Part shown: one piece after another, positions 21,043 to 33,153 of the stretch
How positions within the stretch are numbered: position 1 is the first letter of the stretch
Layout: each line of letters opens with the position of its first letter
DNA from: Candidatus Omnitrophota bacterium
Lineage (GTDB): Bacteria > Omnitrophota > Gorgyraeia > Gygaellales > Profunditerraquicolaceae
Reading direction: 5' to 3'
Assembly: GCA_025453445.1 (NCBI GenBank)
Contig: JALOQJ010000001.1
Location: forward strand, 73,155 to 106,307
DNA length: 33,153 nt
Notes under the pieces: generated by a model
Database searches by the model: none
What the model saw: the letters and a program-made list of their open reading frames with translations, nothing else
What the model was told of the DNA's origin: nothing
Translations under genes and position numbers: made by a program

Positions 21043-21939
21043 ATGCAATTACAAAAACAACAGATTTATTTGATTAGCGGCGCAGTGCTGGCTTTGGCTG
21101 CACTTTTGATGATCAAGGTTTTTCTTGATCAGCAGCGTAAAGCCGCAGAGCAGCAGGCTGCTACTAAGTTCAGAAAGATGCAGGAGAATCAGACTTCCGT
21201 TTTAGTAGCTACAAAGGATATTGTTAAAGGCGCCAGTATTGAAGGAGATAACTTTGAGGCGAAAATCATACCCAATCAGTTTGTTCAGCCGGGCGCGGTT
21301 ACTTCTTTAGATAGGATTTCCGGGATGATGACTGTTGCTCCGGTTTCCAAGGGCGAGCAGATTACTTTAAATAAGCTTAGTTATAGCCGTCAGGTAGGAG
21401 GATTAGCAGAAGTAACTCCTGCCGGCAAAAGGGCAATTACTATTTCTATTGATAACATCGCTTCTTTGGCCGGAATGATTAAGGCAGGGGATTACGTGGA
21501 TGTGATTGCTTTGATTCCTCAGATGGTTTCTATTGGTGAAGGCAAAACCGCCCAACAGCTGGCAGTCCTGCCGATATTTCAAAATGTATTGGTTCTGGCA
21601 GTAGGCCAGGATACCCGGCCTGCTCCAGCTAAAACTGATTTAAGGTTCAGAGGCATAGGCACAGAAGAGAAAAAAGAAACCGTGCCTTTAATTACTTTGG
21701 CGCTTACTCCCAAAGAAGCAAATTTAATTGCTTTTGTGCAGGAGCAGGGAAAAATTAAATTAACTATGCGTTCGCCCGCTGATTCCAAAGTAGAAGAAGT
21801 CCAACCGGCAAGCTGGGATGCTCTGTTGCAATACGTCTATCCAAGGCCGCCGGCAAAAGTTGAAGAAGAACCCAAGCCAGGCGATTATGTCGAGGTTTAT
21901 CGCGGCTTGAATAAAGAAAGAGTGCTTTTTAATAAATGA
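21043..21939 (+). CDS. cpaB: Flp/Tad pilus assembly protein CpaB (RcpC)
   Basis: 298 residues: N-terminal membrane helix (~8-27), SAF domain (~48-115: VLVATKDIVKGASIEGDNFEAKII, GMMTVAPVSKGEQIT), and the RcpC/CpaB domain (RAITISIDNIASLAGMIKAGDYVDVIAL). CpaB is a periplasmic component that works with the secretin of Tad systems. A long C-terminal Pro/Glu-rich tail ends VEVYRGLNKERVLFNK. The stop overlaps the secretin start by four bases (ATGA). Confidence 0.92.
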   Translation: MQLQKQQIYLISGAVLALAALLMIKVFLDQQRKAAEQQAATKFRKMQENQTSVLVATKDIVKGASIEGDNFEAKIIPNQFVQPGAVTSLDRISGMMTVAPVSKGEQITLNKLSYSRQVGGLAEVTPAGKRAITISIDNIASLAGMIKAGDYVDVIALIPQMVSIGEGKTAQQLAVLPIFQNVLVLAVGQDTRPAPAKTDLRFRGIGTEEKKETVPLITLALTPKEANLIAFVQEQGKIKLTMRSPADSKVEEVQPASWDALLQYVYPRPPAKVEEEPKPGDYVEVYRGLNKERVLFNK

Positions 21940-23567
21940 AAAAAATAATTATAATTCTTTTACTTATTACCGTAAGTTTCTTAGGGTTTCCCCTGACGGA
22001 TTATGCTTTAGATGAGGCGCAGGAAGTATTGAGATTATATCTCGGCCAAGTAACAATCATTCCTGTGAGCCATCCCAGCCGTGTAGCTGTGGGTAATCCC
22101 AATATTGCCGACATCGCCGCAGTTACTAAAACCGAAATTACCCTTGCTCCGAAAGCTGTTGGTTCGACGACGCTCGCCTATTGGGATAATTTCGGTGAGC
22201 AATCTTTTAAACTCAAGGTCTTTGCAGAAAATATTCAGGACATTAAGTTACGCGTAGATAATTTATTAAAACAGCTTGAGTTGCCTGAAGTTGCTACTAA
22301 GGCAGAGGAAGACGAAGCAAAAGTCCTGCTTTTAGGCAGGGTGAAGACTGCGCAGGAAAGAGAGAAAATCCTGCTTGCTTTGGGCCCATTAAAAGATAAG
22401 GTCCTTGACCTGACTAAATTAAAAGAAGAAGAAACGATTATTGAAATTGATGTGCAGGTGCTGGAGTTAAATAAAGATGCTACCGATACTTTAGGGTTGA
22501 CCAATCCTTTAAGTACGACTTCCGGTATTACTATTACAGAAGTTGGCAGTCCCGGTATTTCTGCGCTTGGCTCAAAATGGTCCACATTATTTAAAGTGCA
22601 AAATTTATTGCGTGGGACTTCTTCTACAGCAACAACGCCTTTTAGCTGGACTTTGTATGCTTTAATTCAGGAGGGAAAAGCACGCGTGCTTTCCCGTCCG
22701 CGCTTAGCCTGTCAGAGCGGTAAGGAAGCGGAATTATTAGTCGGCGGAGAAAAACCGGTTTTTACCACTACTGTTGCTGCCACAACCGGCGCAGAAGGCA
22801 CAGAAGTTGAATATAAGGAATACGGGATTAAACTAAAAATAAAACCTACTGTTAATGAAGACGAAAGAATTAAATTAGGCTTAAATGTTGAAGTAAGCGA
22901 AGTTGGCACTGCGGAATTTATCGGCTCAACTACTGACCGCACGGCTCAGGCATATCCTTTAAGCAAGCGTACTGCTGTAACTGAGCTATTCTTAAATGAC
23001 GGCCAGACTATGGCTATCGGCGGCCTGATGAAACAGAAAGAAGAAGAAGATGTAGTGCGTACTCCGTGGCTGAGCAATTTGCCTTTAATCGGCGGCGCTT
23101 TCAGAAAGAAACAGACTAAAACCGGCGGCGGAGCCGGAGAAAGAGGCGATGTAGAATTATTTATTACGCTTACTCCCAAGATTATCAGTAAAGATAATGG
23201 CACAGTGCAGGCAAAAAAAGATTTACAGCCTGCAGCTGTTGCGGTTACGCCGGCTGCAAATGTTGAAACTCCCGCTACTGCTGAAACAAGTTATGCCCGG
23301 CTTATCCAGCAGCAGGTTTTAAAAAACCTGACATATCCTCCTCAGGCAAAAGAATCAGGTTTTGAAGGTAAAACCAATTTAAGTATGCGCCTTTCATATT
23401 TAGGCGAGCTTATGGACGTAGCAATCAAGTCTTCCTCAGGTTATAAAATCCTCGACGATAATGCTGTGGCGGTAGCGCGTGAAATTACGTATTATCCGCC
23501 ATTTCCCCCTACGATCACACAAAAAGAACTCTGGATAGAAATACCGATTGATTACCGTTTAAATTAG
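21936..23567 (+). CDS. cpaC: CpaC/RcpA secretin fused to a C-terminal TonB domain
   Basis: 543 residues. In order: signal peptide (1-23); pilus secretin N-terminal domain (~28-95: LRLYLGQVTIIPVSHPSRVAVGNP); an intermediate domain (~100-165); secretin core (~168-420: EIDVQVLELNKD, ARVLSRPRLACQSG, LNDGQTMAIGGLM, LPLIGGAFRKKQT, DVELFITLTPKI); a Pro/Ala-rich linker; and a TonB C-terminal-like domain (~451-543: YARLIQQQVLKNLTYPPQAKESGFEGKT..., ending WIEIPIDYRLN). The secretin forms the outer-membrane pore of the Tad system. The added TonB_C domain is unusual; it may bind peptidoglycan or another envelope protein. No frameshift separates the two parts. Confidence 0.9.
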   Translation: MKKIIIILLLITVSFLGFPLTDYALDEAQEVLRLYLGQVTIIPVSHPSRVAVGNPNIADIAAVTKTEITLAPKAVGSTTLAYWDNFGEQSFKLKVFAENIQDIKLRVDNLLKQLELPEVATKAEEDEAKVLLLGRVKTAQEREKILLALGPLKDKVLDLTKLKEEETIIEIDVQVLELNKDATDTLGLTNPLSTTSGITITEVGSPGISALGSKWSTLFKVQNLLRGTSSTATTPFSWTLYALIQEGKARVLSRPRLACQSGKEAELLVGGEKPVFTTTVAATTGAEGTEVEYKEYGIKLKIKPTVNEDERIKLGLNVEVSEVGTAEFIGSTTDRTAQAYPLSKRTAVTELFLNDGQTMAIGGLMKQKEEEDVVRTPWLSNLPLIGGAFRKKQTKTGGGAGERGDVELFITLTPKIISKDNGTVQAKKDLQPAAVAVTPAANVETPATAETSYARLIQQQVLKNLTYPPQAKESGFEGKTNLSMRLSYLGELMDVAIKSSSGYKILDDNAVAVAREITYYPPFPPTITQKELWIEIPIDYRLN

Positions 23568-23568
23568 T

Positions 23569-25728
23569 ATGGCCAGAATAATTACCATCTTTAGCACAAA
23601 AGGCGGAGTGGGTAAAACTTTGGTTGCCACGAGCCTTGCTGTCAGCCTTGCCCAGGATGAAGCAAAAAAAACCTGCCTGATCGATCTTGATTTGCAGGTG
23701 GTCGGCGATATGGCACGCATGCTCGATTTACATCCACAGAAGGCAATGGTAGATTTAATCGGCCTCATAAAGAAGAAGCCGCAGGAGGTAAAAATTAAAG
23801 ATTTCCTTCTGCATAGCCCCGCCCTAGGGATTGATTTTATCCCCGCGGTTTTAAAGCCTCAGTCCAGCCCGCACTTAGACGCAGATAAAATTAAAGACGT
23901 CATGGAATTACTGGAAAAAAATTATGACTATATTATTATTGATGCCGGCAAGAGCTTCAGCGAAGTCTTTATCAATGTACTGAATCAATCCAACCTGATA
24001 CTGTTGGCAGTTACTCCGGATGTGCTTTCTATTTACCAGACCAAATGGGCGCTGGATACTCTGCAATTCCTGCATTTTCCTATGGCGATGATCCGGATTA
24101 TTTTAAATCGCGCTGAATCAGTATCTGGTATCAGCTGGCAGGAGGTACGGGTAAGTATCCCTGCTGATATTATTGCCCGCATCCCCTCGGAAGGAAGAGT
24201 GGCAGTGCAGGCAGTTAACCGCGGGGTGCCGATAGTTATTGATAACCCGAAAGCAAAAATTTCACAGGCGATAAAGGCTTTTGCCCATGACATAGCCACG
24301 CAGGATAAATTATTCCTTGAACACCATCAGATTGGGGAGCTGGGGATTAAAGAGGCGCCTGTTGAAAGAAATGGTAATTTCTGGCAATCCCAGGGTATGA
24401 CCGAGCCTCTGGCAGAGCCGTCAATTTCTGAAGAAATCGACGAGATATTATTATTGAAACGGCGCATTCACAGCCGGCTGATTGAAGAATTAAATTTAAA
24501 ACGCATGGACTCTAAATTCTTCAGCGATAGCAAGAAAACTAAAGAATTAAGGCTGAAAGCAGAAATAATGGTGGCGAATTTTCTTGCTGAAGAAGCAGGC
24601 AGCCTGATTTCTTCCTCTGATGTGCGCAGGAAATTAGTCAAAGAGATATTGGATGAGGCTTTAGGCCTGGGGCCGCTGGAAGATTTATTGGCAGAGCCCG
24701 GGATAACCGATATTATGGTGAATAATAAAGACGAAATTTATATTGAACGCGGCGGTAAAATTGAGCTGACCAGTAAAAAATTTATTTCTAATGATCAGGT
24801 AAAGACGATTATCGAGCGGATTATCGCCCCTATCGGCAGGCGTATTGATGAATCAGTGCCGATGGTTGATGCCCGGCTTCCTGACGGCTCGCGCGTCAAT
24901 GCGATTATCCCTCCGCTTTCTTTGACCGGGCCGTCGCTAACCATCCGTAAATTCCGCAAAGAACGTTTTAAGACCGAAGAATTAATTGAGCTGAATACCT
25001 TAAATCAGCCAATGGCGGATTTTATTAAGGCTTGTGTTGTGGCGAGAAAGAATATTATTGTTTCCGGCGGTACAGGAAGCGGTAAAACTACTATTTTAAA
25101 TGTGCTTTCTGCCTTTATCCCCGATAATGAGCGTATTGTGACGATAGAAGATGCCGCAGAATTAAAATTACATCAGGAGCATTGGATCAGGCTTGAGTCG
25201 CGGCCTCCGAATATCGAAGGACGGGGGGCGATTACTATCAGGGATTTATTCAGGAATACTTTAAGGATGCGTCCGGACAGGATTCTTATCGGCGAATGCC
25301 GCGGCATTGAGACACTGGATATGTTACAGGCAATGAATACCGGCCATGACGGCTCAATGACTACTGTGCATGCCAATTCCACACAGGATGTTTTTTCCCG
25401 GCTTGATTCGATGATTTTAATGGCCGGAGTGGAGTTACCGATTAGGGCAATCCGGGAAATGATTGCTTCGGCCATTGATATGGTCGTGCATACTGCCCGC
25501 CTTTCCGACGGAACACGTAAAATAATACAGGTTACCGAAGTCGCCGGAATGAAAGACGAAATGCATATTGACTTAAGGGATGTATTTACTTTCCGTCAAA
25601 GCGGCATTGATACCAAAGGTAATATTCTGGGTAATTTTACTGCCACCGGATACGTTCCCTCATTCATCGAAGAAATGAACATGAAGGGTATCATTCTCTC
25701 CAAGGATATTTTTAAAGCCAGCCAGTGA
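23569..25728 (+). CDS. CpaE-CpaF fusion: ParA/MinD-like ATPase joined to Tad secretion ATPase
   Basis: 719 residues in one uninterrupted frame. Residues ~1-245 are a CpaE/TadZ-like ParA ATPase with deviant Walker A KGGVGKT (11-17), DLDLQVVGD and IIIDAGKS. They lack the receiver-like N-terminal domain of classical CpaE. After a linker, ~290-719 are CpaF/TadA: GLGPLEDLLAEPGITDIMVN, VDARLPDGSRVNAI, Walker A GGTGSGKTT (500-508), RILIGECRG (Walker B, E576) and TTVHANST. CpaE normally positions the system and CpaF powers it by ATP hydrolysis. Here both sit in one chain, forcing 1:1 stoichiometry. The start is ATG 23569, 1 bp after cpaC; the stop overlaps the next start (GTGA). Confidence 0.93.
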   Translation: MARIITIFSTKGGVGKTLVATSLAVSLAQDEAKKTCLIDLDLQVVGDMARMLDLHPQKAMVDLIGLIKKKPQEVKIKDFLLHSPALGIDFIPAVLKPQSSPHLDADKIKDVMELLEKNYDYIIIDAGKSFSEVFINVLNQSNLILLAVTPDVLSIYQTKWALDTLQFLHFPMAMIRIILNRAESVSGISWQEVRVSIPADIIARIPSEGRVAVQAVNRGVPIVIDNPKAKISQAIKAFAHDIATQDKLFLEHHQIGELGIKEAPVERNGNFWQSQGMTEPLAEPSISEEIDEILLLKRRIHSRLIEELNLKRMDSKFFSDSKKTKELRLKAEIMVANFLAEEAGSLISSSDVRRKLVKEILDEALGLGPLEDLLAEPGITDIMVNNKDEIYIERGGKIELTSKKFISNDQVKTIIERIIAPIGRRIDESVPMVDARLPDGSRVNAIIPPLSLTGPSLTIRKFRKERFKTEELIELNTLNQPMADFIKACVVARKNIIVSGGTGSGKTTILNVLSAFIPDNERIVTIEDAAELKLHQEHWIRLESRPPNIEGRGAITIRDLFRNTLRMRPDRILIGECRGIETLDMLQAMNTGHDGSMTTVHANSTQDVFSRLDSMILMAGVELPIRAIREMIASAIDMVVHTARLSDGTRKIIQVTEVAGMKDEMHIDLRDVFTFRQSGIDTKGNILGNFTATGYVPSFIEEMNMKGIILSKDIFKASQ

Positions 25729-26093: not shown

Positions 26094-26127
26094 GGCCGTA
26101 GCGGAGGTTTAAACCTCCGCTACGGCC
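26094..26127. repeat. Perfect 34-bp palindrome (17 + 17, no loop)
   Basis: GGCCGTAGCGGAGGTTT is followed directly by its exact reverse complement. Weaker pairing extends outward (TTCTCCTT with AAAGAGAA). It lies 28 bp after the DUF192 stop and upstream of the TPS promoter. With no T-run after it, it is not a standard terminator. A REP-like repeat or a dimeric protein site is more likely. Confidence 0.95.
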
Positions 26128-26175: not shown

Positions 26176-26204
26176 TTGACAAAAAAACCATTCGAGGGTA
26201 TAAC
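26176..26204 (+). promoter_or_regulatory. Strong sigma70-type promoter of the TPS locus
   Basis: TTGACA (26176-26181) is a perfect -35 box. After 17 bp comes TATAAC (26199-26204). The start is expected near 26211, leaving an AT-only ~24-nt leader without a Shine-Dalgarno before ATG 26235. Confidence 0.85.
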
Positions 26205-26234: not shown

Positions 26235-28331
26235 ATGCCCTCATACTCTCGAAAAAATTTACTTCAATTAGCTATCTTTTTAGCCTCGCTTTTTATCACC
26301 CAACCCCTTTATTCCCAATCAGCTGTAGAAAGAGCCACCCGCGAAGCAGATATTTTAGGTGACCGCGAGAAAATTCAGGAAAAATTAAGAACAGTTCCTG
26401 ATAAACCGCCTGCGCCCAAAGTAAAAGATGTGCCTTTAAGGGAACCGGGTGAAAAATTTTTCGTGAAAAAGATAAATTTGGTAGGTTGCGAATATATTTC
26501 TGCCAAGGAATTAGAGCCGTTTTTGGAGAAATACCAAAACAGGGACGTAACCTTGGCGGAAATTGAGACTTTAGCTAAAGAAATCGAGCGCGAATATTTA
26601 AGGCGGGATGTGATTGCCGCGGTAATTATTCCGGCGCAGGAACTTAAGGATCAGCTTGTAACTTTGCAGGTTATTGAAGCTAAAATGGGTGAGTTAAAAA
26701 TTCAGGAGCATAAGTATTTCAATAAAGACCGGCTGATGTATTATTGGAAAGTTCCTACCGGCACAATTATGCGTTATGATAGGATTTCCAAGAGCATACA
26801 GATGATGAATAAAAATCCCGACCGCGAAGTAAAAGCTGCGCTTGCTGCCGGTAAAAAACCCGGAACAACCGACGTAATTTTAACTCCTACTACGCGTTTT
26901 CCGATGCACGCCACCTATTCTTGGGATAATGAAGGAGTGCTCTCTAGCGGTAAAAAAAGATTAGGTTATGGCCTGCGCTACAATAATCTTTTTGGCTTAG
27001 ATGATACTTTTATCGGTGGTGCCAGTGTCGGAAGGTCATTCGGAGGCACATATTTTTACCATACTCTGCCGGTGAATTTTGAGGGAACGAGCATTATGTA
27101 TGGCTACAGCCGCAGCTGGTCAAAGCCTTTAGGAGACTATGCCGGTACCGGCCTGAAATCCGAAGCAGTAAACAGCAATATTTCTCTCCGGCAGGACTTA
27201 TATCGCAAAGATGAATATGTGGGCGAAGTATTTTTAGGTTTTGATTCTAAGGACAAAGTGATTAAGACCAGCACCCAGTTGATTAACCGCGACCGGCAGC
27301 GTATGTTTAGCATAGGGGCAAATCTCGTGGACCGGCGCGTAGGAAGCAGTACCTATATTTCTCCGGAGTTTGAGCAGGGCGTCAGCGCATTTGGCGCAAC
27401 TACTCATAATAATGTTTTTGCCTCCAGAAACGCATATCCGGTATTTAGCAAATTTAATTTAAGCGTTCAGCATAAGAGGGCGCTGCCTTATAATTTACAA
27501 GCAAATTTAAAGTTTAAAAGCCAGGTAACTTCCAGAAAATTAGTGCCGCAGGAACAATTCGGCTTAGGCGGTATTGATTCAGTGAGGGGCTATCCTGCCA
27601 GTGATTATTTGGCGGATAATGCCTTAAACACCAGCGCAGAAATCCTCATTCCGGCGTTTTTTATCCCTCAGGACTGGAAAATACCTTATGCCGAGGATAC
27701 TTTAAAAAACCAAACTACTGCTTTGGGCTTTGTGGATTATGGCTGGGGTATGCGCAGAGGGGCTTTACCTACGGAAAAAGGAAAAATTAATTTATTAGGT
27801 ATCGGCGCGGGCGTGCGTTTCAGCCTTTTTAATCAGGCGCTGCTGCGTTTAGAATGGGGGTTTCCTGTAGGCGCGAATAACCCCGAGACCGAAGGCGGAA
27901 GGGGAAGGTTTCATTTTGCCGTAGATGTTCAGGAAAAGACACCTGAGGAAATAGAGCGTATCCGTAAATTAGTCGAGGAAGAACATATCAAACAATGGGC
28001 ATGGAAACTGGTCAACGAAGAACTCTCCCGGCCGCTTAGCCCGATCAGGAAAAAAATAGACGGGCTTATGCAATTAGCTCATACTGCCGGGGAAAAAAAC
28101 AAGCAGGAAGAAGTGAGGATCATTAAACAAAAAATCAGCAGCCTGCAAGCTTCTTTATACCGGCAGGCAGAAGAATATGTGCGCGGCTGCATTCTGCAGG
28201 AAAAAGAGCTGCGTGAATACCGTAAGCTTGCCGAAGTAAGTTATAAAGAAGGCGATATTGATAAAGCAAAGCAGTTGTGGCAGAAGATTGTCGTTGAAGC
28301 AAAGCCCAAGCCTTTAATCCTTGAGTTTTAA
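26235..28331 (+). CDS. Two-partner secretion outer-membrane transporter (TpsB/ShlB-like) with a helical C-terminal extension
   Basis: 698 residues: signal peptide (to ~28), N-terminal linker with Pro-rich segment, POTRA domain (~75-150: FFVKKINLVGCEYISAKELEPFLEKY, TLQVIEAKMGELKI), then a beta-barrel (~220-565: THATYSWDNEG-like strands, QEQFGLGGIDSVRGYPAS as the VRGY/F motif of the family, FVDYGWG, LLGIGAGVRF, LRLEWGFPVG). Barrels of this family normally end at the last strand. Here RFHFAVDVQ is followed by ~130 mostly helical residues ending KAKQLWQKIV, a TPR-like hairpin, and a final Phe. TpsB proteins export large beta-helical adhesins. The promoter at 26176 starts the transcript; the next gene is 11 bp downstream. 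Confidence 0.9.
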   Translation: MPSYSRKNLLQLAIFLASLFITQPLYSQSAVERATREADILGDREKIQEKLRTVPDKPPAPKVKDVPLREPGEKFFVKKINLVGCEYISAKELEPFLEKYQNRDVTLAEIETLAKEIEREYLRRDVIAAVIIPAQELKDQLVTLQVIEAKMGELKIQEHKYFNKDRLMYYWKVPTGTIMRYDRISKSIQMMNKNPDREVKAALAAGKKPGTTDVILTPTTRFPMHATYSWDNEGVLSSGKKRLGYGLRYNNLFGLDDTFIGGASVGRSFGGTYFYHTLPVNFEGTSIMYGYSRSWSKPLGDYAGTGLKSEAVNSNISLRQDLYRKDEYVGEVFLGFDSKDKVIKTSTQLINRDRQRMFSIGANLVDRRVGSSTYISPEFEQGVSAFGATTHNNVFASRNAYPVFSKFNLSVQHKRALPYNLQANLKFKSQVTSRKLVPQEQFGLGGIDSVRGYPASDYLADNALNTSAEILIPAFFIPQDWKIPYAEDTLKNQTTALGFVDYGWGMRRGALPTEKGKINLLGIGAGVRFSLFNQALLRLEWGFPVGANNPETEGGRGRFHFAVDVQEKTPEEIERIRKLVEEEHIKQWAWKLVNEELSRPLSPIRKKIDGLMQLAHTAGEKNKQEEVRIIKQKISSLQASLYRQAEEYVRGCILQEKELREYRKLAEVSYKEGDIDKAKQLWQKIVVEAKPKPLILEF

Positions 28332-28342
28332 GAGCATATTTA

Positions 28343-31300
28343 ATGAATAACAGAAAGCCGAAAAAATATTTTATTATTTTTTTAACCGGGGTGTTTATTT
28401 CTTCGCATCTGGCTGCGTTTGCTCAGAATGCTGCGCCTGCTACCAAGCCTGCATCAGGCAGTATTGTTCCGGCGCCGGCTGTGCAAACCTTAAAGCCTGA
28501 GGAGAAAAAAGAAGAGCAGGTAGTTAAAGATGAAGTAGAAGTTGATGCGGAGTTTATTGAAAAAACATTGGCCGATTACAAACATAACCTGAAACAACTT
28601 ATTGAAACAGCAAAGCAGCATTTAGCCACCATAGATAAAGAAATAGTGGATGCCGAAGTTTTAGTTCGTAATAGAGAGAGAGAAAAGAAATTCCTGGTGC
28701 ATTTTTATAAAGCTGACAAATATTATTCTCAGGGGAATTTAAAAGATGCCAAGAAGGAATGGATGGAGGCGTTAAAGTATACTGAGGATCCTGAAATGCA
28801 GGGTTATATCCGGCAGGCAGAACAAATTGCTGTGCAGGAAGATGCTGCCCGGAAGAGAAAAGAAATTAAAGAGAAACAGGCGCGTGAAGCAGAAGCAAGG
28901 GAACAGGAAAAACAAGAAAAAGAAAGGAAGCGCCAGGAAATGCTCGCGCAGCAGGAGCAGGCTCGTTTAGATGCTGAAAAGAAGCGCCAGGAGGATCTCT
29001 TGCGTCAGGAAGAGGCGCGTAAACAGAAAGAAGAAAAAATCCGCTTAGAAAGAGAACGCCTGCAACAGGAGATTGAACAGAAAAAGGCTGAGATAGAATT
29101 ACAAAAAAGGCTGGCGGTTGAGAGGAAAGAACAGCTGCGCTTAGAAGTAGAAAAGCGCAAACAAGAAGAGTTGGCGCAAAAAGAACAAGCCCGTATCGAA
29201 ACAGAGCAAAAGCGCCAGGCAGCATTAGCGCGTCAGGAAGAAGAACGTAAATGTAAAGCCGAAGAATTACGCCAGAAAGAAGAGCAAGCCAGGCTAGAGA
29301 AACAACGCCAGGAAGAAGAGATTGCTCAGAAAAAAGCCGAAGAAGAAAAGAAGCGCCAGGCAGCATTAGCGCGTCAGGAAGAGGAGAAAAAACAAAAAGA
29401 AGAACAGCTAAAAAGAGAGGCTGAAGAGAAGCGGCAGGATGAACTATCCAAAAAACGGGTTGAAGCTGGATTAAAAGAACAAATTGAAGCTGAGCGCAGA
29501 GAAAAAGAAGCGCTTGCGCAGGAAGAAAAAGAGCAGGCGCGCCTTGCTGCAGAGAAACTTCGTCAGCGGGAGCTTAAACAACAGGAAGAAGCGGGTATAG
29601 AATCTGTTAAGAAAGCCCAAGAAGAAGCTGGCCGGTTGGAAGAAGAGCGTAAAAAAGCAGAAGAGCAAGTTAGATTAGGGAAGCAACGTAAAGAAGAAGA
29701 GCTCACACGTAAAGAACAGGAGCTTAAGCGTAAGGAAGAAGAATTACGCCAGAAAGAAGAGCAGTTAAAATTAGAGAAAGAACGCAAAGAGCAGGAACTT
29801 GCCCAAAAACAGGCAGAAATAGAATTAAAACAAAAAGAAGCAGCAGATAAGCTTGCACAAGTCCGTCTTGAGGCTGAAAGAAAACATCAGGAAGAGATCA
29901 GTCAACGCGAGGAGGCACGTAAGTTAAAAGAAGAGGAGCGTAAACAAAAAGAAGAAAAAATAAGATTAGAAAAAGAGCGGCGCCAGGAAGCGGCTCGGAT
30001 AGAGCAACAAAAGAGAGAAGAAGGTATCGCGAAAAGACAAGCTGAAGCCGAAGAAAAATTAAAACAACAAATTGTTGCAGAAACTAAACAGGTTAAAGAA
30101 GAGCTGGCGCAAAAAGAACAAGCCCGTATCGAAGCTGAAAAGAAACGTCAGGAAGGGTTGCAGCGTAAAGAAGAAATTCAACGTCAAAAAGGAGAGAAGC
30201 TTCGGTTGGAGAAGGAACGTAAAGAGGCAGAACTTGCTGAACAAGAAGCTGCGCTTGAAGAGAAAAGAAAACTGGAAGTTGATAAAAAAGCTGAGGTTGA
30301 AAGGAAACAACAAGAAGAATTCAACCGTAAAGAAGAAGCGCGCCGTGCTAAAGAAGAACAAATAAGATTAGAGAAACAGCGTAAAGAGGAAGAACTGGCT
30401 CAAAAAAAAGCCGAAGCAGAAAAACAGCGGCTGCAGGAATTTGTGATTAAAGAACAAGAGCGCCGCCAGAAAGAAGAGCAGGTAAAATTTGAAGCTGCGA
30501 AAAAAGAACAGGCTCGTCTTGAAGCTGAGAAAAAGCGCCAAGAAGAATTGCAGCGTAAAGAAGTTATTCGTCAACAAGAAGAGCAGCAGCGACAGGCAGA
30601 GTTTACTAAACGAAAAGAAGAAGCAGAGCGTAAAAAACAATTAGAGGCCGAGCAAAAAGAGCAAGCTCGTATTGAAGCCGAACAAAAACACCGGGAAGAA
30701 TTACAACGTAAAGAAGCTGAACGTCAGGCGAAAAAGGAGCAAGTTAGGATAGAAAAGCTTCGTAAAGAAGAAGAGATTGCTCAGAAAAAAGCCGAAGCAG
30801 AAAAACAGCGGATGCAGGACGCGGTTATTAAAGAACAAAAACAAAAATTAGAAGCTGAGAAAAAAGAGCAGCTGCGTTTAGAAGCAGAAAAGCGCAGGCA
30901 GGAAGAACTAGCGCAAAAAGAGCAAGCCCGTATTGAAGCCGAAGAAAGACGTCAAGAGGAGTTAGCTCAGCGGGAAGCTGAACGTCAGGCAAAAGAGGAA
31001 CAGGCTAGGATAGAAAAGCTTCGCAAAGAAGAAGAGCGGCAGCAGAAAGCAGTGCAGGCCAAAATAGAGAAAGAGCGCAGAGAAGCCGAACTTGCTCAGA
31101 AAAAAGCTGAAGCCGAAGAAAGACGTCAAGAGGAGTTAGCTCAGCGGGAAGCTGAACGTCAAGTAAAAGAAGAAGAGCAGCGGCAGAGAGAAGAGCAGGT
31201 TCGCTTAGAGAGACAGAGAAAAGCAGAAGAATTAGCGGAGAAGAAAGCTGAGGCAGAAGCAAGGCGTCAGGAAGAGCTTGCCCGGAAGGAAGAAGAGCGT

Positions 31301-31675
31301 AGGATAAAAGAGGAAGAGCTCACCCGGCAAAAAGCCGAAGCAGAACGTAAACGGCAATTAGAAATTGCCCGCCGACAAGAGGAGCAGAGGTTAAAAGAAG
31401 AACAGGCAAAAGTAGAAAACGCCATGCGTCAGCAGGAAATTTCCCGCAAAAAAACTGAAGCAGATTTAAGGAAAAGATTAGAGAATGAGCAAAAAGAACA
31501 GGCCCGGTTAGAAGCAGAACGTCTTCGTATAGATGAAGCAAAACAGGCCCGCCTGGAAGCCGAACGCAAATATAAAGAAGAATTGGCACAGCAAGAATCA
31601 GACCTCGCCCGCCGTCAGGAAGAACTCCAGAGAAGTAAAGAAATGCAGGAACAACTTCAAGGTTTAGAAGAGTAA
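28343..31675 (+). CDS. Giant secreted, highly charged single-helix/coiled-coil protein
   Basis: 1110 residues: signal peptide (~1-28, ending AAFAQN), a Pro/Ala-rich stretch (~29-50), a helical part with a TPR-like hairpin (~112-150: FYKADKYYSQGNLKDAKKEWMEALKY), and then ~940 residues almost only of Glu, Lys, Arg, Gln, Ala and Leu. Phrases such as KRQEELAQKEQARIEAE recur with variation. Such E/K/R patterns form stable single alpha-helices or coiled coils; fully extended, 900 residues would be about 135 nm. There is no known catalytic motif, cysteine pair or C-terminal anchor. It resembles no named family I can assign; similarity to TolA-like or caldesmon-like sequences is compositional. The frame is intact. 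It is co-transcribed with TpsB. Confidence 0.85.
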   Translation: MNNRKPKKYFIIFLTGVFISSHLAAFAQNAAPATKPASGSIVPAPAVQTLKPEEKKEEQVVKDEVEVDAEFIEKTLADYKHNLKQLIETAKQHLATIDKEIVDAEVLVRNREREKKFLVHFYKADKYYSQGNLKDAKKEWMEALKYTEDPEMQGYIRQAEQIAVQEDAARKRKEIKEKQAREAEAREQEKQEKERKRQEMLAQQEQARLDAEKKRQEDLLRQEEARKQKEEKIRLERERLQQEIEQKKAEIELQKRLAVERKEQLRLEVEKRKQEELAQKEQARIETEQKRQAALARQEEERKCKAEELRQKEEQARLEKQRQEEEIAQKKAEEEKKRQAALARQEEEKKQKEEQLKREAEEKRQDELSKKRVEAGLKEQIEAERREKEALAQEEKEQARLAAEKLRQRELKQQEEAGIESVKKAQEEAGRLEEERKKAEEQVRLGKQRKEEELTRKEQELKRKEEELRQKEEQLKLEKERKEQELAQKQAEIELKQKEAADKLAQVRLEAERKHQEEISQREEARKLKEEERKQKEEKIRLEKERRQEAARIEQQKREEGIAKRQAEAEEKLKQQIVAETKQVKEELAQKEQARIEAEKKRQEGLQRKEEIQRQKGEKLRLEKERKEAELAEQEAALEEKRKLEVDKKAEVERKQQEEFNRKEEARRAKEEQIRLEKQRKEEELAQKKAEAEKQRLQEFVIKEQERRQKEEQVKFEAAKKEQARLEAEKKRQEELQRKEVIRQQEEQQRQAEFTKRKEEAERKKQLEAEQKEQARIEAEQKHREELQRKEAERQAKKEQVRIEKLRKEEEIAQKKAEAEKQRMQDAVIKEQKQKLEAEKKEQLRLEAEKRRQEELAQKEQARIEAEERRQEELAQREAERQAKEEQARIEKLRKEEERQQKAVQAKIEKERREAELAQKKAEAEERRQEELAQREAERQVKEEEQRQREEQVRLERQRKAEELAEKKAEAEARRQEELARKEEERRIKEEELTRQKAEAERKRQLEIARRQEEQRLKEEQAKVENAMRQQEISRKKTEADLRKRLENEQKEQARLEAERLRIDEAKQARLEAERKYKEELAQQESDLARRQEELQRSKEMQEQLQGLEE
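30934..30987 (+). repeat. 54-bp exact repeat within the giant helical gene, copy 1
   Basis: The block beginning TGAAGCCGAAGAAAGACG is identical over 54 bp to 31108-31161, 174 bp (58 codons) away. Exact identity at synonymous positions points to recent duplication or gene conversion instead of protein-level constraint. Confidence 0.9.
31108..31161 (+). repeat. 54-bp exact repeat within the giant helical gene, copy 2
   Basis: Second copy of the block at 30934-30987, in the same frame. Shorter near-identical blocks also occur, for example around 30405-30430 and 30785-30815 (AAAGCCGAAGCAGAAAAACA), so the gene appears to grow and shrink by internal recombination. Confidence 0.9.
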
Positions 31676-31684
31676 GAGCAGGGT

Positions 31685-33153
31685 TTATCCGGGGCTGAGG
31701 GTAATTGCTTCTTCAGTTTCTTCTTGCCTCTTCTCCGGTACAATCGTAGTATCTTTAGCTGCTTTATCTTTGATTGCCTTAGTTTTATCTTCTTCTTCCA
31801 TTTTTATTGTAGTTGTAGCAGGCTTTACTATATCTTTTATTGGTTGCGTTATTTCTTTAACTGTTACAGGTGTTTCTTGTATTGTACGTACTGCCGTCGG
31901 TGCTGGCGCTGGTTTAGCCGCCGGTAATTCGACCATAGATACCAGGTTAGTCCCGCTGGCAATTGAAACATTACTTAGCATAAGATTATCAAGTGCCGCA
32001 GCCATATTGTTATTGGCAATAGTATTGGCTGATGGATTGATTGTATCTGTGCCTTGGGTGGCTTCTTCAGCCTGTCTTGGCCCCATCTGTGCCCAGCCAA
32101 TACAATTATGGAATATGCTGCTCATGCTGTAAATTATTGGCCCGAGGTTATGGCTGTTATTGACGCAGAGGAAATTTACATTTACACTGCCTTTTGGCCA
32201 GATATTCCATGATTGGCCAGTGAGGGTTAATAAGTTTCCTGCTGTGCCGTAGAAAGTCATATTCCCCATAACCGACTGGGTAGTGTTGGTTGCGAAGACA
32301 ATATTTTTCCCAGCTATTGTGCAGGCCAAGTTATAGAAAGTATTGGAATTGTAGATATTGCTTATGTTCGCAGCATTATTGAAGATAACAGTGTTATTGC
32401 CATGGATAAAGGTTCCATAATTGGCCCAATCGCCTGCCAAGGTAATTGTTTTTCCGGAAGCATTCAGGGTGTTGCCGGATGCAATGGTTAAATCTCCGCT
32501 AATATTAATGGCATCCAGCAGTACGCAGCTGCCGCTGGATTTATTAATCGTGACATTGTAGAATGTCGCATTGCCTGAAGTAATATTCTGTCTGCCGCTG
32601 CCACGGAAGAATACAGTATATCCGTTTGCGTTAAAGATACCGCAGGAATTAGTGAAATCATTATTGATATAGAGATCATGCATTAGTTTTAATATACCGC
32701 TGCCAGAATGGGTTAAATTATACAATGCGGAATCCCCGGCATTCAAATTTTGCGTGCCTGTTCCGTTGAATGTCACGGTATATGCGCCGGCAGACAAGTT
32801 ACTATTGTTAATAAAGTTGCCGGAAAGCGCCATATTGCCTGTCAAGTGATGAGTTGTAGTTAAGCTTGGATCAAGAATCAAATGGTGATATGCCACAGCC
32901 GCAATATACGTATCACTGCCTGATCCGGTATAGACGACAGTTGAGCCAGTGCCTTTGTTGAAGTTAGCCACAGCCAAAGGTGTGCCAGTACCGGTAAGGG
33001 TTAAGGTATAATTATTATTACCTAAATTAAGTGTGCCGCTGCCACTGTTAGAAATCATTGTAATATCAGAATCTAAGGTTACTGTTCCGGTAATTGCTAC
33101 TGCGTTTAAGCTTGCGGCATTGCTTGAGCTGTTGGTTAAAGTAGTTGTACCAT
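31685..33153 (-). CDS. Beta-helical adhesin/TpsA-like protein, C-terminal part (5' end beyond window)
   Basis: The frame is open from the window edge to a TAA at 31687-31685, so at least 488 residues; an internal ATG at 33058 is not the start. The first ~340 residues form beta-solenoid repeats of about 45-50 residues, e.g. YTVTFNGTGTQNLNAGDSALYNLT, then YTVFFRGSGRQNITSGNATFYNVT, with Gly/Asn/Thr-rich strands. A segment SWNIWPKGSVNVNFLCVNNS...HNCIGW closes the solenoid. It is followed by a Pro/Ala linker and a Lys/Glu-rich tail (~60 residues: KMEEEDKTKAIKDKAAKD...). It is convergent with the helical protein gene (9-bp gap) and is a natural cargo candidate for the TpsB at 26235. The N-terminal TPS signal domain cannot be seen. 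Confidence 0.8.
   Translation of the reverse strand, partial: GTTTLTNSSSNAASLNAVAITGTVTLDSDITMISNSGSGTLNLGNNNYTLTLTGTGTPLAVANFNKGTGSTVVYTGSGSDTYIAAVAYHHLILDPSLTTTHHLTGNMALSGNFINNSNLSAGAYTVTFNGTGTQNLNAGDSALYNLTHSGSGILKLMHDLYINNDFTNSCGIFNANGYTVFFRGSGRQNITSGNATFYNVTINKSSGSCVLLDAINISGDLTIASGNTLNASGKTITLAGDWANYGTFIHGNNTVIFNNAANISNIYNSNTFYNLACTIAGKNIVFATNTTQSVMGNMTFYGTAGNLLTLTGQSWNIWPKGSVNVNFLCVNNSHNLGPIIYSMSSIFHNCIGWAQMGPRQAEEATQGTDTINPSANTIANNNMAAALDNLMLSNVSIASGTNLVSMVELPAAKPAPAPTAVRTIQETPVTVKEITQPIKDIVKPATTTIKMEEEDKTKAIKDKAAKDTTIVPEKRQEETEEAITLSPG

What the first reader, a model, noticed from the sequence alone, without database searches (positions are those of the whole stretch)
26235..31675. 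Possible new envelope system: TPS transporter plus giant helical protein sharing a TPR-like module
The hairpin at the end of the transporter (VSYKEGDIDKAKQLWQKI) resembles one near the start of the 1110-residue helical protein (KYYSQGNLKDAKKEWMEAL): same spacing of Y, G, D/K-A-K and W. The genes are co-transcribed from one strong promoter. I infer that the tail of the transporter docks the N-terminal module of a rod-like protein, which could span the envelope, act as a ruler, or project from the cell.
Basis: partly seen in the sequence, partly recalled or inferred. Interest (0 to 1): 0.8.

Follow-up and report, generated by a model that had tools for sequence, protein, structure and literature searches.

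The report
Secretion pore with docking stalk partner
In the uncultured bacterial phylum Omnitrophota, some outer-membrane secretion pores carry an extra tail inside the envelope that appears to clasp a helical partner protein made by the next gene, and the same tail-plus-partner set also serves a second, unrelated kind of giant surface protein.

Summary
Observation confirmed. 26235-28331 is a TpsB-type two-partner-secretion pore (ShlB, POTRA_2, VRGY and FxDxG motifs intact) with an extra ~130-residue TPR tail after the barrel. 28343-31675 encodes a signal-peptide protein: N-terminal module plus a 935-residue proline-free charged helix. The shared hairpin is real, but it is the generic TPR consensus.

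Docking has better evidence. Of 55 tail genes found in 384 phylum genomes, 53 can be judged: 49 have the partner gene directly downstream, 2 have it fused in one reading frame, 2 lack it. Twenty-five tail-less TpsB loci have none. The tail+partner set also sits on 2,200-4,300-residue giant barrel-like proteins. AlphaFold2 of a natural in-frame read-through (tail plus partner) gives pLDDT 88.6, pTM 0.74 and a strand pair between the two proteins. The most constant partner element is a helix (YxxNLKxLI...) upstream of the hairpin; one partner is only 84 residues.

A fixed ruler is excluded (partners 84 to >2,200 residues). Best reading: a periplasmic docking partner, probably a tether, for a TPS pore. 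A TpsA-like repeat gene lies convergently next door; TPS-domain TpsA is confirmed in two relatives. New variant of a known kind. The stalk's far end is unexplained.

The parts
26176..26204 (+). sigma-70-like promoter TTGACA-17-TATAAC
   Evidence: only match in the window, 0.01 expected; not listed by the stricter generic scan
26235..28331 (+). TpsB-type outer-membrane translocator, 698 aa, with an extra C-terminal tail
   Evidence: ShlB 3.3e-27, POTRA_2 3.1e-12; VRGY and FxDxG motifs
26457..26678 (+). POTRA_2 domain (residues 75-148), periplasmic
26862..27821 (+). ShlB beta-barrel (residues 210-529)
27939..28328 (+). TPR tail (residues 569-698), inferred periplasmic; tail profile A4
   Evidence: absent from 25 tail-less TpsB loci
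   Evidence: TPR_2 match
28311..28328 (+). C-terminal strand PLILEF; its counterpart LILEF in G007 is predicted to pair with the partner
   Evidence: AlphaFold2 strand E127-130; motif table
28343..31675 (+). partner protein, 1110 aa, Sec signal peptide (AFA|Q)
   Evidence: no Pfam family for the whole protein
28535..28546 (+). partner strand VEVD (residues 65-68)
   Evidence: counterpart of AlphaFold2 strand E187-190 in G007
28577..28648 (+). conserved docking helix YKHNLKQLIETAKQHLATIDKEIV
   Evidence: position-specific score 25.9 against 12.6 for the best unrelated ORF
28577..28861 (+). N-terminal module: docking helix plus TPR hairpin (profile A5)
   Evidence: TPR_2 match E=2e-4
28868..31672 (+). 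stalk, residues 176-1110: no proline; opposite charges at i+3/i+4 and like charges at i+7, as in single alpha-helices; 140 nm if one straight helix
31685..33151 (-). C-terminal part of a TpsA-like beta-repeat exoprotein, probable cargo; cut by the contig end
   Evidence: contig ends at the window end; homologous repeats in four relatives; convergent exoprotein genes in relatives

Best explanation
This is a two-partner-secretion (type Vb) pore with a built-in periplasmic docking tail. The TpsB barrel sits in the outer membrane; after its last strand the chain continues into the periplasm as a short TPR tail. The next gene makes a Sec-exported partner whose first ~100 mature residues dock on that tail through a conserved helix and, in the TpsB class, by adding a strand to the tail's C-terminal strand. 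The rest of the partner is a variable stalk: a long charged single helix in this family, TPR-rich chains in others. Shown: gene pairing, modularity, loss together with the tail, fusions. Predicted: the docked structure. Inferred: periplasmic location (signal peptide plus Omp85 topology), and that the stalk tethers the pore, and through it the large surface protein it secretes or carries, to the inner parts of the envelope.
For: Tail profile in 54 and N-module in 67 of 384 phylum genomes; 47 of 55 tails have an N-module hit within 740 bp downstream on the same strand. Three of the remaining eight have an adjacent partner that keeps only the helix. G282 carries the helix in cis on the end of the tail (score 35.5 against 12.4 for the best unrelated ORF); G355 fuses tail and partner in one ORF. 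25 tail-less TpsB loci, including one in this genome: no N-module nearby. The tail sits on two barrel types, separated by one branch (99/95) of the tail tree. AlphaFold2 of G007's in-frame read-through: pLDDT 88.6, pTM 0.74, only two strands, one in each protein; giant-class pair: pLDDT 83.6, pTM 0.67. TpsB-class tails end in a PLVLEF-like strand and their partners have a VEVS-like strand, while almost all giant-class pairs lack both. Confirmed TPS-domain TpsA genes convergent to the partner in G104 and G167.
Against: No PAE or coordinates were available, so the interface is read from pTM and secondary structure alone; there was no negative-control prediction. The alignment was shallow (37-41 rows). 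The strand correlation reflects one branch of the tree, hence one event. Nothing identifies what the far end of the stalk binds, and in the TpsB class its C-terminus is not conserved. Partners as short as 84-139 residues exist, so a rod cannot be essential everywhere. G084 has a tail without an adjacent partner.
Confidence: 0.6

Rival explanations
1. The partner is an accessory subunit that stabilises or helps assemble the barrel, as BamD or BamE do for BamA; the stalk is a dispensable low-complexity expansion.
For: Smallest partners are signal peptide plus docking strand and helix (G241, 84 aa) or little more (126-139 aa); the conserved part is the docking part.
Against: Stalks of hundreds to 2,000 residues are kept in most genomes, and giant-class partners often end in a common motif, LDxxE, which suggests a second contact.
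Confidence: 0.22
2. The partner is a periplasmic chaperone or escort that keeps the huge passenger unfolded and feeds it to the pore.
For: TPR proteins often bind unfolded or extended peptides; the partner is coded next to an exoprotein gene.
Against: The same partner serves giants whose passenger-like part is on the same chain as the barrel, so recruiting a separate substrate cannot be its general task.
Confidence: 0.12
3. TolA/TonB-like force transducer coupling the inner-membrane motor to the pore.
For: Long charged helix like TolA domain II (PMC12204202).
Against: The N-terminus reads as a cleavable signal peptide, not an anchor; no TolA or TonB domain is found; the docking part is at the N-terminal end, opposite to TolA.
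Confidence: 0.03
4. The two genes are chance neighbours that share a generic TPR motif.
Against: Pairing across many families, none at tail-less TpsB, fusions, and the AlphaFold2 pseudo-complex.
Confidence: 0.03

Closest known systems
Two-partner secretion, TpsB/FhaC family (type Vb)
   Same: POTRA_2, ShlB barrel, VRGY and FxDxG lid-lock motifs; TPS-domain TpsA next to the tailed TpsB or its partner in relatives
   Different: C-terminal periplasmic TPR tail and a dedicated docking partner. A survey of 12,869 Omp85/TpsB proteins reported no further domain profiles with the TpsB barrel (PMC4104836).
HMW1/HMW1B/HMW1C, a TPS system with a third partner
   Same: A third gene added to a TPS pair (PMC3983070)
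   Different: HMW1C is a glycosyltransferase; this partner is an exported helical protein that appears to bind the pore
BamA with BamD/BamE
   Same: Omp85 barrel with helical periplasmic accessory proteins (own knowledge)
   Different: There the accessories bind the POTRA side and are lipoproteins; here binding is to a tail behind the barrel and no lipobox was noticed
TolA
   Same: Long charged helical periplasmic stretch
   Different: No membrane anchor apparent, no TolA domain; docking end is N-terminal
Omnitrophota giant surface ORFs (PMC10066038)
   Same: Same phylum; giant barrel-like proteins of 2,200-4,300 residues carry the same tail
   Different: That paper's passages that I searched do not describe the tail, the partner or two-partner secretion

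Membership tests
TpsB / two-partner secretion | POTRA_2 domain | tested here: met
   E=3.1e-12, over cut-off
TpsB / two-partner secretion | ShlB barrel (PF03865) | tested here: met
   E=3.3e-27
TpsB / two-partner secretion | (V/I)RG(Y/F) on loop L6 and (F/G)xDxG on strand 13 (PMC4490367) | tested here: met
TpsB / two-partner secretion | partner TpsA with a TPS domain coded nearby | tested here: inconclusive
   Window ORF 31685-33151 is cut before its N-terminus. TPS domain met in relatives G104 (3.5e-22) and G167 (9.6e-25)
TpsB / two-partner secretion | chain ends with the last barrel strand (customary, not strictly defining) | tested here: not met
   130-residue tail follows
TPR proteins | TPR motif in both modules | tested here: met
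   TPR_2 below Pfam's cut-off in single sequences, but profiles match designed consensus TPRs at 3e-11 and 5e-18
TolA | TolA or TonB C-terminal domain | tested here: not met
   no Pfam family in the 1110-aa protein
TolA | N-terminal inner-membrane anchor | not testable with these tools
   sequence reads as a cleavable signal peptide (AFA|Q); cleavage not tested
Coiled-coil OM tethers of the Omp-alpha/OmpM type | SLH or other cell-wall-binding domain | tested here: not met
   no Pfam family found in the partner

The most novel reading that the evidence does not exclude
A transferable barrel-tail/docking-stalk cassette: Omnitrophota have a dedicated periplasmic anchoring device that is attached to unrelated outer-membrane barrels (TPS pores and giant autotransporter-like proteins) and ties their huge surface proteins to the inside of the envelope.
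Probability: 0.4. Interest if true: 0.75.

Novelty: new variant of a known kind. Interest (0 to 1): 0.6.

Why it matters
Two-partner secretion is generally taken to need just a pore and its cargo. Here a large uncultured phylum adds a periplasmic clasp with a long stalk to the pore, and uses the same clasp on another class of giant surface protein. It gives a concrete, testable handle on how tiny host-associated Omnitrophota might hold giant surface proteins in place, and a tail/partner pair small enough (about 130 and 100 residues) to express and test in E. coli.

Tried and rejected
Fixed ruler: rejected, partner length 84 to >2,200 residues. Hairpin likeness as evidence of docking: rejected as generic TPR. 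Known fold for the complex: no PDB match with E<=0.001 (collected). Alignment A7 (giant class only) misaligned tail against N-module and was replaced by A8. A first beta-moment script timed out; its replacement worked. My strand-motif patterns were written after seeing the sequences and give only 8 of 15 TpsB pairs with both motifs; by eye all 15 have both, so that table is illustrative. Literature search found no paper holding both 'Omnitrophota' and 'two-partner secretion'.

Full report
What is there. The window is the end of contig 40 of a 1.29-Mb genome, and the contig stops at the window's last base. All 18 relatives found by name are Candidatus Omnitrophota. ORF 26235-28331 is a TpsB-type pore: ShlB 3.3e-27, POTRA_2 3.1e-12, and both Omp85 signature motifs (motifs defined in PMC4490367). 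Its barrel match ends near residue 529 and the chain then runs on into a helical tail, residues 569-698. ORF 28343-31675 starts 11 bp later and has a signal peptide (AFA|Q), an N-terminal module and a 935-residue stalk with no proline. In the stalk, charge correlates at i+3 (-0.32), i+4 (-0.43) and i+7 (+0.31), as in single alpha-helices.

The hairpin likeness. Tail and N-module match profile to profile over 34 columns (82%, E=1e-5). Both match designed consensus TPRs (3e-11 and 5e-18).

Pairing. I searched 384 phylum genomes with each profile. The tail is in 54 and the N-module in 67. Of 55 tail hits, 47 have an N-module hit within 740 bp downstream on the same strand; one of these, G355, is a single fused ORF. 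Of the other eight, two are cut by contig ends (G186, G206); G348, G229 and G241 have an adjacent partner gene that the profile missed; G282 carries the partner's helix on the end of the tail itself; G084 and G180 have no adjacent partner. That makes 49 adjacent, 2 fused and 2 without, of 53 that can be judged. At 25 tail-less TpsB loci, including the second TpsB of this genome, no N-module is nearby. That second TpsB has its own TPS-domain TpsA. Several N-module genes without an adjacent tail lie at contig edges; in G167 a Mutator transposase lies where the pore gene would be.

What is conserved. A profile of the helix YxxNLKxLIxxAxxxIKxVDxxI, built without the window, G348, G229 and G241, scores these at 25.9, 64.9, 32.0 and 35.2; the best unrelated ORF of 2,851 scores 12.6. 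In the 23-column version G282's fused copy scores 35.5 against 12.4. Three partners keep the helix and lack the TPR hairpin, and G241's partner is only 84 residues, with no remnant in other frames. The docking helix is therefore the core, the hairpin comes second and the stalk is variable: 84 to >2,200 residues overall, helix-like in the TpsB class of the window's family, TPR-rich in the giants. A fixed ruler is excluded.

Two kinds of barrel. In G042 and many other genomes the tail ends a 2,200-4,300-residue protein instead of a TpsB. Three such giants carry DUF11 and carboxypeptidase-regulatory-like matches, and G042 begins with beta repeats reminiscent of the window's convergent ORF (my reading of the sequence; the homology search did not link them). 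The region before the tail has beta amphipathicity at least as strong as the TpsB barrels (z mostly 2-5 against 0.4-2.8); no barrel family matches, so 'barrel' is inferred there. In the tail tree all 17 TpsB tails fall on one side of a branch (99/95), so the swap happened once, and the partner followed.

Predicted docking. In G007 the two genes are in frame with two TAA stops between. Reading these through gives one 302-residue chain of tail plus partner N-terminus. AlphaFold2 with 41 rows gave pLDDT 88.6 and pTM 0.74, with 244 residues at 90 or more. The only two strands are the tail's LILEF (127-130) and the partner's VEVS (187-190), separated by a largely low-confidence linker, so they must pair with each other. 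My estimate is a pTM near 0.5 for undocked modules and 0.75 for docked ones. The giant-class pair from G178 gave pLDDT 83.6, pTM 0.67 and no such strands. This agrees with the sequences: by eye all 15 listed TpsB-class tails end in a PLVLEF-like strand with a VEVS-like strand in the partner, while 24 of 26 giant-class pairs have neither. That correlation is one evolutionary event. No PAE, coordinates or negative control were available.

Cargo and neighbours. ORF 31685-33151 on the minus strand is the C-terminal part of a beta-repeat protein, with homologous repeats in G084, G104, G229 and G317. Convergent exoprotein genes lie next to the partner or pore in G151 and G070 (YDG domains), G096, G084, G104 (TPS domain 3.5e-22) and G167 (TPS domain 9.6e-25). 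FecR and CHASE2-GGDEF genes recur beside the tailed TpsB.

Mechanism. Omp85 barrels have their N-terminal POTRA domains and C-terminus on the periplasmic side (family knowledge), so the tail should be periplasmic, where the partner's signal peptide would deliver it. I infer that the partner docks there and that the stalk tethers or spaces the pore and its surface protein. Docking I hold at about 0.85; the tether role at about 0.5 given docking. The partner is not needed to recruit a separate cargo, since giants with their passenger-like part on the same chain use it as well.

Novelty. [quoted passage not shown] It remains two-partner secretion by every defining feature that could be tested, with an added tail and partner: a new variant of a known kind.

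Noticed in passing
21936-23567 (+): Tad-type secretin fused at its C-terminus to a TonB_C domain (4.8e-14); an unusual combination.
   Followed up: no
23569-25728 (+): CpaE-like ParA ATPase fused to a CpaF-type secretion ATPase; the same fusion is seen in G007 (L037 5469-7625) and probably G151 (L103).
   Followed up: partly
26094-26127: Perfect 34-bp palindrome GGCCGTAGCGGAGGTTTAAACCTCCGCTACGGCC between the DUF192 gene and the TpsB promoter.
   Followed up: no
L039 1151-1720 (G006), L107 4235-4765 (G377): Transglutaminase-like gene (weak match to the BTLCP peptidase family) beside the partner gene in two different families.
   Followed up: partly
L105, L108, L109, L103, L039, L038, L112: FecR gene, mostly with a CHASE2-GGDEF gene, beside the tailed TpsB; suggests c-di-GMP control.
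   Followed up: partly
C-termini of giant-class partners, e.g. L116, L117, L124, L127: Shared C-terminal motif of the form LDxxE, possibly a second docking site at the far end of the stalk.
   Followed up: no
L142 3827-4846 (G355): Tail and partner joined in one 339-aa ORF through their TPR hairpins; real fusion or assembly collapse not resolved.
   Followed up: partly
G000:C42:4294-6952 (L035): Second, tail-less TpsB with its own TPS-domain TpsA in the same genome.
   Followed up: yes
L039 1680-3536 (G006): Tailed TpsB of 618 aa that lacks the VRGY stretch; part of the barrel appears deleted.
   Followed up: no
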